DNA of 64,000 bases from NCBI GenBank assembly GCA_016200325.1, contig JACQEZ010000008.1:124001-188000 (forward strand), read 5' to 3'. Under the pieces are notes generated by a model. It worked only from the letters and a program-made list of their open reading frames with translations. It did not search any database and was not told the DNA's origin. A program made the position numbers and the translations under genes. Of this stretch, positions 27,956 through 30,833 are shown one piece after another. This DNA is from Candidatus Manganitrophaceae bacterium (GTDB lineage Bacteria > Nitrospirota > Nitrospiria > SBBL01 > Manganitrophaceae). Position 1 is the stretch's first letter. Every line of letters starts with the position of its first letter.

Positions 27956-28039
27956 ATGGGAAATTTGGTTTTGGTGGCTGCGTGCATCTTTCTAATCTTT
28001 ATGGCGGCGATTGTGGTGAAGCCTCCTAAGGGACCTTAA
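27956..28039 (+). CDS. Possible 27-residue single-helix membrane protein
   Basis: Reading from the ATG at 27956 gives MGNLVLVAACIFLIFMAAIV followed by VKPPKGP: one hydrophobic helix and a short basic/Pro tail. The ribosome site is weak (GGTGGGAT). It lies in an otherwise empty gap of almost 600 bp between htrA and the next gene. Composition alone supports it; no family recognised. Confidence 0.35.
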   Translation: MGNLVLVAACIFLIFMAAIVVKPPKGP

Positions 28040-28320
28040 ACATCCGACGGTTTCGGCGGTCCGGCTCGCCGTCCCATGGTCTTTCCTACGTGCAATTCGG
28101 AAACGTCCTCTCGTTCTACCGGGTCCTGATCACCTGATCGGTCGAAATAAATAAATCCTTCCTTCACCCGGCTTTGTTCTCTTTATCCGAATTACTTTCT
28201 TTTAAATCGAAAACGAAACAGCGCGAGAACAGATCGGTCATGGGTCGACCATTGCGCATGGCAAAACGTCGGCAAAGCGCGGCGAAACGGGGGATAGGAC
28301 GGGGGATAGGATAAGACCGG
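28040..28320. other. Intergenic region, no gene seen
   Basis: Together with 27744-27955 this makes a gap broken only by the possible 27-residue protein. No promoter pair or stable hairpin stood out beyond short GC-rich repeats near 28270-28315 (a repeated GGGGGATAGGA-type motif). Confidence 0.5.
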
Positions 28321-28794
28321 TCAGTAACGGATGGTAACCATAAAAGCGAGGGGGGCGGACGTCACGGCGGCTTCTCGATTGAAGAGGCGTTCATTTTCAA
28401 AAACGACGATCTCTTCCTGATATCGGATGGTGTCTAGAATCGAAGAGGAGAATGGCTCGGGGAGATAAAATGCAGCCAAGATGGACAGGGTGTAAATGAA
28501 GAAGTAGCGGTTGATCCGGGCCGCGGTCGGCTGCCGGCCCAGCAGGGGGTTGTTTTCCTCAAACCCACGATGACCCAATTGAAGGGTCTGCGTCCAATCT
28601 TTCATAAGCGAGGGAAGGAGGGAAACATATTTCGCGAGCTTGACCTCCTCGCCGGGAGGGAGGAGATATTTCTCCGACAGCGTATAACCGATGGGGGAGG
28701 AGACCGGCGCTTCAAATGCCCCCGCAGCCGCCGCCTCGGCCGGACCCGCCATCACTCGGACAATCAGTGCGATTAGAACGATTAGAATATTCAT
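28321..28794 (-). CDS. Hypothetical exported or membrane-bound protein
   Basis: A 157-residue protein with an N-terminal hydrophobic signal (about 1-22, ending in an Ala-rich stretch) and a second hydrophobic segment (YFFIYTLSILAAFYL, about 97-112). The centre carries the pattern DWTQTLQL ... GFEENNPLLGRQPTAARIN, which recurs in small uncharacterised envelope proteins. No enzymatic motif. Single gene; function unknown. Confidence 0.65.
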   Translation of the reverse strand: MNILIVLIALIVRVMAGPAEAAAAGAFEAPVSSPIGYTLSEKYLLPPGEEVKLAKYVSLLPSLMKDWTQTLQLGHRGFEENNPLLGRQPTAARINRYFFIYTLSILAAFYLPEPFSSSILDTIRYQEEIVVFENERLFNREAAVTSAPLAFMVTIRY

Positions 28795-29040
28795 ACCGCA
28801 GATAAGTATACCAATAAATTAAATTTTTGGAGGGAGGATCCGGATGGAAGGATCGGCGGCCTGACAAAAGGTCGGGGGGGCTCATCCGCAGGTCATCGGC
28901 CAGAGGCGCCGGCGCGGCGTCGGATTCGAATAAGGGACAGAGGGGCTGGAGGGCCCCTCATCCGGGCAAGACCGGGCGGTTTAAAAGGAAGGTCGGCGAA
29001 TCAAAACGGAGGGGAAGAGCGGACGGATCCCGCTGAACGT
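28795..29040. other. Intergenic region, no gene seen
   Basis: Between the hypothetical envelope protein and the 47-residue protein. An open frame at 28827-29036 is Arg/Gly-rich with no ribosome site and is not called. Ends at a terminator. Confidence 0.5.
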
Positions 29041-29075
29041 AAAAAAACGGGGCGGATCAGATCCGCCCCGTTTTT
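29041..29075. terminator. Bidirectional intrinsic terminator
   Basis: Perfect 11-bp stem ACGGGGCGGAT / ATCCGCCCCGT (29047-29057 and 29061-29071), 3-base loop, A7 on one side and T5 on the other. It lies 20 bp downstream of the small minus-strand gene. Confidence 0.88.
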
Positions 29076-29095
29076 CGTCCTTCCTTCGGACGGCT

Positions 29096-29239
29096 TTAAG
29101 CATCTTTCACCGCCTGAAGAATCGTCTGATAGGCTTCACCGATCTTCTCAGGCGTCAGGGTATCCTGCATTTTCTCCATGAACTTCAACGTGAGTTCCAT
29201 GGCAATTTCTTCGTCACTTGGTCTTTCAGCCTCCATCAT
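29096..29239 (-). CDS. Small acidic helical protein (47 residues), unknown
   Basis: Reading from the ATG at 29239 gives an all-helical, acidic protein: MMEAERPSDEEIAMELTL, then KFMEKMQDTLTPEKIGEAYQ and TILQAVKDA. GGAG lies six bases before the start and a strong terminator lies just after the stop, so it looks like a complete small transcription unit. No family recognised. A regulator or adaptor is possible but not supported. Confidence 0.6.
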   Translation of the reverse strand: MMEAERPSDEEIAMELTLKFMEKMQDTLTPEKIGEAYQTILQAVKDA

Positions 29240-29636
29240 TCGCTCCAGGTTTAGTCACGGTTCACAACTATATTAGACAGGACGATTCGCAAAGTGCAAG
29301 GGCGGCAGAGACGCCCGACCCTTGCTCTGGGTCATAGACGTTTTTCGGAATCAGTTTCAAAACGATAGCAATGGCAATAGTAAAGAAGGGAAGACGATTA
29401 TCAAATATTTGAGATAAGTGATGCCGAGACGCAGAATTGAACTGCGGACATAAGGCTTTTCAGGCATAACCGAGATTAATCTATCATGACCCACCCTGAG
29501 AGATCAAGAGATTAGGCGCCCTGGTTCTTGTAATGGGTCACGATAGATCATGGTGAATTGGGATGGATCGGTACTAAAGTGCGGATTTAATCTTCTAAGA
29601 GGATGGCGCTATGCCGAGATTTAAAAAAGAAGCTCT
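29240..29636. other. Intergenic region containing the partial tRNA-Phe copy
   Basis: About 400 bp, AT-richer than the flanks. Its main content is the tRNA-Phe 3' duplication at 29415-29465 (separate entry). A conceptual 17-codon frame begins at 29611 just before the small membrane protein; no support for expression. Confidence 0.5.
29415..29465 (-). repeat. Partial copy of tRNA-Phe 3' half (candidate att site)
   Basis: These 51 bases match 30754-30804 (the 3' half and flank of the intact tRNA-Phe) at all but about four positions, in the same orientation. The match covers the 3' flank, acceptor 3' strand, T-arm, variable loop and anticodon stem-loop, then stops abruptly. This is the arrangement left when an element integrates at the 3' end of a tRNA gene. 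Confidence 0.85.
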
Positions 29637-29738
29637 ATGGATGATGATCAGCCCTTCATCCTAACCGTGCTCGCTGTCCTCATTTTAATATTCACACCGA
29701 TTTTCATTAATTGGCTGAGACGGTTATCGGGCCGATGA
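29637..29738 (+). CDS. Possible 33-residue single-helix membrane protein
   Basis: MDDDQPFILTVLAVLILIFT, then PIFINWLRRLSGR: an acidic N-terminus, one long hydrophobic helix and a basic C-terminus, a typical small-membrane-protein layout. The ribosome site is weak (AAGAAG). It lies inside the tRNA-Phe-flanked segment and overlaps the end of the opposing methyltransferase by 15 bp. Confidence 0.4.
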   Translation: MDDDQPFILTVLAVLILIFTPIFINWLRRLSGR

Positions 29739-30437
29739 TTTTGTTCCTTCCAATGTCATCGTTTCTAACTGCAAGAACCCTTTTGGCAAGCGGTCCTCGT
29801 TTTCTAAATTCCTGAATGCCTCATCCTCGCTCTCTTTGAGATTGCATCTCGTAATTTTTCTGAAACCTGTTCTTTCCATGGACGAGCGGAGTGTCTTCTC
29901 GTCATAAATGAAGAGGTGCCCCCAATCTCGTACGAAGTTGTTAATAACGAATGTGTCATCAGGATAGGGGGCCTCATTGATGAAATTCTCTGTGGCCCAT
30001 TTGATATATTCTTTCTGCAGATCTGATTTTTCCTTTTTGTAGAGGTTCATTAAGAACAACAAATCAGGCGTCGATATTCGAACCTTTCCCCCTTTTTTAA
30101 GGACACGCGCACATTCAGTCAGCATCAGTGAGCCTTGCGAATAGGTGACATGTTCGATCATGTGCTCACTGAAGATGTAATCAAATACGTCATCATCAAA
30201 CGGAAACGGTCGAATTGCATCTAAGTGCAAAACAGTCGGCGACTTCGGATTGTAGTCTGAATTAAGCCACCCTTGAAGAATGTTAACGCCGCATCCGAGA
30301 TGTAATTTTCGTATGTTGTTCCGGCTTAAATATTCCTCAATCATTCTGGTCCCCGAGTTCCTTTTATCCATTCGTTTGGTTCTGATGATATGATCCAGCT
30401 TTTCCGAATGGGCGGGCAATCCTGAGAACCACAGCAA
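29724..30437 (-). CDS. SAM-dependent methyltransferase (class I)
   Basis: Up to 237 residues. The SAM-binding motif I is KLHLGCGVN, followed by an acidic motif II (VLHLDA), FDYIFSEHMIEHV (motif IV, typical of small-molecule methyltransferases) and ECARVLKKGGKVRISTPD. This family often sits in sugar or O-antigen clusters. The start is uncertain: the longest frame begins with TTG at 30437, while ATG codons at 30371 and 30344 are alternatives. The sequence is AT-richer than surrounding genes and lies inside the tRNA-Phe-flanked segment, suggesting transfer. Substrate unknown. Confidence 0.8.
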   Translation of the reverse strand: MLWFSGLPAHSEKLDHIIRTKRMDKRNSGTRMIEEYLSRNNIRKLHLGCGVNILQGWLNSDYNPKSPTVLHLDAIRPFPFDDDVFDYIFSEHMIEHVTYSQGSLMLTECARVLKKGGKVRISTPDLLFLMNLYKKEKSDLQKEYIKWATENFINEAPYPDDTFVINNFVRDWGHLFIYDEKTLRSSMERTGFRKITRCNLKESEDEAFRNLENEDRLPKGFLQLETMTLEGTKSSAR

Positions 30438-30757
30438 CCTTCTCCGGAGGAGATTCTATCCGGCGCTCCGTCGGGCGGGTTTCAGATAGATCCGCTTTCC
30501 ATGACCTCGCCATCCGTTCGCATGCCTCATTGATCATGAACAATAAACAGCGAAATATATTTAGGATCAACTCGGTCATTCTTCGATCAAAGTCACGATG
30601 GATCTCTATGGGCATCTGATGCGACCGACGACAGCCGGGCGGCAGAGAAACTCGCCGCCCCGGCTTTGGGAGATCAAAAAGAAGCTGAAACAAGTAGCAA
30701 AATGGTAGCAATTGGAAGGGCTGGAGGAGGTGAGCTAATGCAAATCCTTGATCTAAG
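30438..30757. other. Region between methyltransferase and tRNA-Phe, no supported gene
   Basis: An open minus-strand frame reaches from 30711 into the methyltransferase (to 30364), but it lacks a ribosome site and recognisable sequence and overlaps the methyltransferase by up to 74 bp. It may be a remnant of a lost gene of the mini-island. Confidence 0.45.
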
Positions 30758-30833
30758 TGGTGCCGAGACGCAGAATCGAACTGCGGACACGAGGCTTTTC
30801 AGGCCTCTGCTCTACCGACTGAGCTATCTCGGC
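30758..30833 (-). tRNA. tRNA-Phe (anticodon GAA)
   Basis: Complete 76-base cloverleaf on the minus strand with encoded CCA. Acceptor GCCGAGA/TCTCGGC, D-arm GCTC/GAGC, anticodon loop CTGAAAA (anticodon GAA), T-arm CGCAG-TTCGATT-CTGCG. Its 3' end faces the partial copy at 29415-29465. Confidence 0.97.

What the first reader, a model, noticed from the sequence alone, without database searches (positions are those of the whole stretch)
29415..30833. Mini-island bounded by tRNA-Phe and a copy of its 3' half
51 bases of the tRNA-Phe 3' half and flank recur 1.3 kb away in the same orientation with only about four changes. Between them lie an AT-rich methyltransferase and a possible 33-residue membrane protein, but no integrase. 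This looks like a deletion-reduced integrative element or a satellite that depends on an integrase elsewhere.
Basis: partly seen in the sequence, partly recalled or inferred. Interest (0 to 1): 0.7.

Follow-up and report, generated by a model that had tools for sequence, protein, structure and literature searches.

The report
Worn-out mobile-DNA remnant at tRNA-Phe
A small, decayed mobile DNA element sits in the tail of a phenylalanine tRNA gene; its integration enzyme is present but broken and its methyltransferase gene is still intact, so it is an ordinary leftover of an old insertion, at a tRNA that was invaded at least once before.

Summary
47 of 51 bases of the tRNA-Phe 3' half recur 1,339 bp away in the same orientation. 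Homology actually spans about 170 bp (29296-29465 against 30632-30804). It has at least two nonsense mutations and three frameshifts. Relatives of this integrase across the class sit beside tRNA-His, -Arg, -Ser or -Thr, and the nearest sits beside tRNA-Phe. Four congeners have the tRNA without the second copy or the methyltransferase, and order-level relatives have plain sites. Every congener with the locus carries an older integrase-tail scar there, so the site was used at least twice. No intact integrase of this subfamily was found in the genome. Verdict: a deletion-reduced remnant of a classic tRNA-targeted integrative element, apparently immobile, with a retained horizontally acquired methyltransferase. 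It is a known kind of thing; interest is low. The satellite reading has no support.

The parts
30758..30833 (-). tRNA-Phe (GAA), intact, the only copy found in the genome; integration target, regenerated on the integrase side (attL-like)
   Evidence: ARAGORN; Rfam 70.6 bits; no second copy in own genome
30754..30804 (+). right copy of the att-like core (tRNA positions 30-76 plus 4 bp)
29415..29465 (+). left, displaced copy of the tRNA-Phe 3' half (attR-like), 47/51 identical; not a functional tRNA (18 bits against a 29-bit cut-off)
30394..30757 (+). pseudogene: C-terminal part of a tyrosine integrase reading toward the tRNA, His and Tyr boxes readable, Arg box broken, at least 2 nonsense and 3 frameshift lesions; its last open frame runs on across the tRNA to 30884
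   Evidence: Pfam PF00589 only E 0.049 for the unmended reading but tblastn E 5e-9 to 2e-31 with related integrases
30694..30711 (+). GTAGCAAAATGGTAGCAA double repeat inside the integrase 3' end, shared with related integrases; candidate integrase arm site (inference)
29296..29414 (+). older scar: integrase-tail-like sequence left of the displaced tRNA fragment, homologous to the tRNA-Phe 3' flank of congeners (clearest with G003)
29724..30371 (-). intact class I SAM-dependent methyltransferase (ATG start; TTG start possible at 30437), horizontally acquired cargo
   Evidence: Pfam PF08241 E 1.5e-9; absent from congeners; nearest relatives in other phyla
29637..29738 (+). 33-codon ORF with a hydrophobic stretch; no family match, may be chance
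27956..28039 (+). 27-residue conserved small gene (MGNLVL...) that marks the ancestral neighbour of tRNA-Phe in relatives

Best explanation
An integrative element (temperate phage or genomic island; which cannot be told) encoding a tyrosine integrase inserted into the single tRNA-Phe gene by recombination in the anticodon stem-loop region. Its attP carried the tRNA 3' half, so the gene was regenerated next to the integrase end, and the host's original 3' half was displaced to the other end (29415-29465). The host tRNA flank already carried the integrase-tail scar of an earlier element. The newer element then lost nearly everything by deletion, including the N-terminal part of the integrase. 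What remains is a dead integrase 3' end, the two att-like copies and one intact methyltransferase, which is probably kept by selection or arrived later. It is most likely immobile today. Shown: repeats, tRNA integrity, integrase homology and lesions, absence from relatives, scar distribution. Inferred: the crossover, the order of events, selection on the methyltransferase.
For: Repeat and orientation. Integrase remnant found with related class integrases at E 5e-9 to 2e-31 at exactly this place and nowhere else in the window. The nearest relative is also beside tRNA-Phe and reads open across the tRNA; other family members lie beside tRNA-His, -Arg, -Ser and -Thr. Lesions. Four congeners with the same tRNA-Phe locus lack a second core copy and the methyltransferase. 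Order relatives have plain sites: G008 with the small gene about 10 bp from the tRNA, G014 about 220 bp. No integrase-tail flank outside the genus. No close integrase elsewhere in the genome.
Against: No relative is close enough to show an exact base-level empty site: congeners are about 72-75% identical in DNA and their sequence left of the scar differs. The 120-bp flank alignment does not resolve which of the two integrase tails is the older (19 columns join the left copy with G003, 21 the right copy). The left copy has drifted, so attR is inferred from one member.
Confidence: 0.9

Rival explanations
1. A satellite or cis-mobilisable element that is moved by an integrase encoded elsewhere (in trans).
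For: Two att-like cores 92% alike remain, so a matching integrase could in principle excise it.
Against: The five PF00589 genes found in the genome are not of this subfamily (best blastp E 0.036). The element carries its own dead integrase. Its cargo and 33-codon ORF show no satellite hallmarks.
Confidence: 0.04
2. Tandem duplication of the tRNA region followed by decay, with no integrase involved.
For: Homology between the two sides extends beyond the tRNA into the flank.
Against: A tandem duplication predicts two copies of the 1.34 kb unit; only 170 bp match. The two copies are less alike in the flank (59%) than each is to the congener G003 (66% and 69%). An integrase remnant ends at the tRNA.
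Confidence: 0.02
3. Same two-insertion history but in the other order: the body now seen here dates from the genus ancestor and was reduced to the integrase tail in congeners, while the left tail comes from a still older element.
For: The flank tree slightly groups the right copy with three congeners.
Against: The left copy shares AAAACGATAGCAATGG and GTCAT with G003; column counts are tied.
Confidence: 0.3

Closest known systems
tRNA-borne genomic islands as catalogued in Islander (PMC4383910)
   Same: tRNA plus displaced same-orientation 3' fragment marking the ends; anticodon-centred core (their class A); tyrosine integrase; tandem use of one tRNA; integrases that extend across attP are known (Mx8, SSV)
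   Different: 1.3 kb between the copies (Islander requires at least 2 kb) and no intact integrase ORF, so that pipeline would reject it
tRNA gene fragments left by element integration (PMC9897764)
   Same: partial tRNA copy generated by integration of a mobile element, described there as pervasive
   Different: here the element itself is reduced to one intact gene and an integrase stub
Integrases with a C-terminal GSKMVA tail encoded by TAGCAAAATGGTAGCAA beside a tRNA (viral contigs L111 and L116; G023 L073)
   Same: G023 copy about 56% identical to the raw reading of the window over the C-terminal domain; same tail repeat; tRNA-convergent position in G023 and L116
   Different: those keep the C-terminal domain in an open frame; the window copy is frameshifted and lacks the N-terminal part

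Membership tests
tRNA-integrated genomic island (intact) | complete tRNA plus a same-orientation 3' fragment at the other end | tested here: met
tRNA-integrated genomic island (intact) | intact tyrosine integrase ORF within the interval | tested here: not met
   only a C-terminal pseudogene
tRNA-integrated genomic island (intact) | length of at least 2 kb (Islander filter) | tested here: not met
   1,339 bp between the copies
decayed tRNA-integrated element (remnant) | integrase relic adjacent to and converging on the tRNA | tested here: met
decayed tRNA-integrated element (remnant) | insert absent from the same locus in relatives | tested here: met
   at genus and order level, not strain level
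tyrosine recombinase (PF00589) | R-H-R-Y catalytic residues in an intact frame | tested here: not met
   LGHSS and DLYGHL boxes readable, HxLRH box frameshifted, N-terminal part gone
satellite dependent on a helper integrase | same-subfamily integrase available in trans | tested here: not met
   none found in own genome
satellite dependent on a helper integrase | excised circle detectable | not testable with these tools
   no reads available
class I SAM-dependent methyltransferase | Methyltransf_11 domain with the glycine-rich SAM motif | tested here: met
   PF08241 38.8 bits over a 21.2 cut-off; LHLGCG motif conserved

The most novel reading that the evidence does not exclude
The two cores are still recognised by an integrase that visits the host from time to time, so that the 1.3 kb segment behaves as a methyltransferase cassette mobilisable in trans.
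Probability: 0.04. Interest if true: 0.45.

Novelty: new member of a known kind. Interest (0 to 1): 0.15.

Why it matters
It is a clean example of how a tRNA insertion site accumulates scars: each round can leave an integrase 3' tail, because that end is joined to an essential tRNA gene, while the rest is deleted. Integrase stubs beside tRNA-His in other genomes of the class look similar. It also shows one foreign gene surviving after its vehicle has died. None of this is new in kind.

Tried and rejected
Tandem duplication: rejected (only 170 bp match). Satellite with helper integrase: no helper found. Left copy as a functional tRNA: rejected (18.2 bits, below the 29-bit cut-off). A structured RNA in the flank: no Rfam match. 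A GC-rich dyad about 100 bp from the tRNA first looked like a conserved functional hairpin; it coincides with integrase C-terminal coding sequence (AAEKLAAPA) and occurs once in each of five congener genomes, only beside tRNA-Phe; a structural role is not excluded. A pattern search for the tail repeat next to tRNA-Phe across the phylum used too short a spacer and missed even the window itself, so its zero is uninformative. The query had its broken Arg box partly read as the family consensus, so its 86% self-identity must not be used; the unmended reading or raw window DNA was used. DNA similarity of the interior in plasmids: none. Methyltransferase in phages: one distant hit and one viral contig at 48%.

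Full report
OBSERVATION. ARAGORN places an intact tRNA-Phe (GAA) at 30758-30833 on the minus strand. Its 3' half plus 4 flanking bases (30754-30804) recurs at 29415-29465 with 4 changes in 51; the next best 51-mer in the window matches 29 of 51. The repeat finder gives 64 bp at 88%, spacing 1,339 bp. The shared part starts at tRNA position 30, at the 5' side of the anticodon stem-loop, and ends at the 3' end, which fits the anticodon-centred class of tRNA attachment cores described by Islander (PMC4383910). The tRNA is the only tRNA-Phe found in the genome, so it had to be regenerated.

THE MISSING INTEGRASE IS THERE, BROKEN. On the + strand, ending at the tRNA, one frame reads RRRFYPALRRAGFR*IRF...DQLGHSSIKVTMDLYGHLM, and the next frame continues AAEKLAAPALG...SSKMVA... 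and on across the tRNA to 30884. Related integrases taken from genomes of the class match the raw window DNA here at E 5e-9 to 2e-31 and nowhere else in the window. Compared with the closest relative (G023, locus L073), the window copy has at least two nonsense changes and three frameshifts in about 95 codons and lacks everything upstream. Pfam PF00589 recognises the relative (E 2.2e-9) and only faintly the broken copy (E 0.049).

THE INTEGRASE FAMILY. The relatives stand next to tRNA genes: mostly tRNA-His, also tRNA-Ser, tRNA-Arg and tRNA-Thr, and for the closest one tRNA-Phe. In several of them the integrase frame runs into the tRNA gene antisense; integrases extending across attP are already known (Mx8 and SSV, as noted by Islander). 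The 3' end carries TAGCAAAATGGTAGCAA, also present in related integrases of viral contigs, so the source element may have been a temperate phage; this is not decided. C-terminal integrase stubs beside tRNAs recur in other genomes of the class.

RELATIVES. In order-level relative G008 a 27-residue gene lies about 10 bp from tRNA-Phe; in G014 about 220 bp, with no integrase sequence. In the 11 order relatives outside the genus with a tRNA-Phe match, homology starts at the tRNA itself, so none has the integrase-tail flank; all four congeners with the locus do. Those congeners have one core copy, no methyltransferase and no integrase body there. In the window the left tRNA fragment is followed outward by the same kind of tail (29296-29414). 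So the genus ancestor's tRNA-Phe already bore a scar, and a second element inserted later or, less likely, the order was reversed; the 120-bp flank cannot settle which (19 against 21 columns). Either way at least two insertions used this tRNA.

CARGO. The methyltransferase is a class I SAM enzyme (PF08241), uninterrupted, and aligns along its length with relatives. It is absent from congeners; nearest relatives are 47-67% identical, in MAGs of several phyla, and it is more AT-rich than most of the flanks (43-45% against 47-59% GC). At the integrase's lesion density about 11 lesions would be expected in it and none is seen (Poisson chance about 2e-5, assuming equal age). It has therefore either been selected or arrived later. 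The 33-codon ORF has no support beyond being open.

MECHANISM. Shown: repeats, intact tRNA, integrase homology and lesions, absence in relatives, older scar. Inferred: integrase-mediated crossover in the anticodon region, deletion of the interior, present immobility. The satellite idea lacks a helper: the five PF00589 genes of the genome are of other kinds (best blastp E 0.036). Tandem duplication is excluded by the short extent of homology.

VERDICT. A decayed tRNA-targeted integrative element, a well-known kind. tRNA fragments left by integration are described as pervasive (PMC9897764). Interest is low.

Noticed in passing
window 28040-29290: 1.25 kb between the conserved 27-residue gene and the left tail is not at this place in congeners; its 157-residue gene (28321-28794) is a genus gene found elsewhere in their genomes, so a rearrangement also hit this site.
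   Followed up: partly
G000:C19:388000-400000 (L070 5938-7149): A 373-residue integrase converges on tRNA-Met with a 748-residue protein (primase/helicase-like by eye) beside it: a separate, apparently intact integrative element in the same genome, integrase of another subfamily.
   Followed up: partly
L075, L079, L080, L089: C-terminal integrase stubs beside tRNA-His or tRNA-Arg in several genomes of the class (some cut by contig ends); the tRNA-joined end of the integrase seems to be the part that survives.
   Followed up: partly
window 29483-29552: Inverted pair ATCTATCATGACCCA / TGGGTCACGATAGAT about 40 bp apart just inside the left core; possibly an attachment-site arm, possibly chance.
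   Followed up: no
window 29043-29075: Perfect 16-bp GC-rich inverted repeat flanked by A and T runs, a strong terminator-like hairpin.
   Followed up: no
L073 / L102 (G023): The closest integrase relative, also at tRNA-Phe, is itself cut, apparently by an IS630-type transposase near the contig end.
   Followed up: partly
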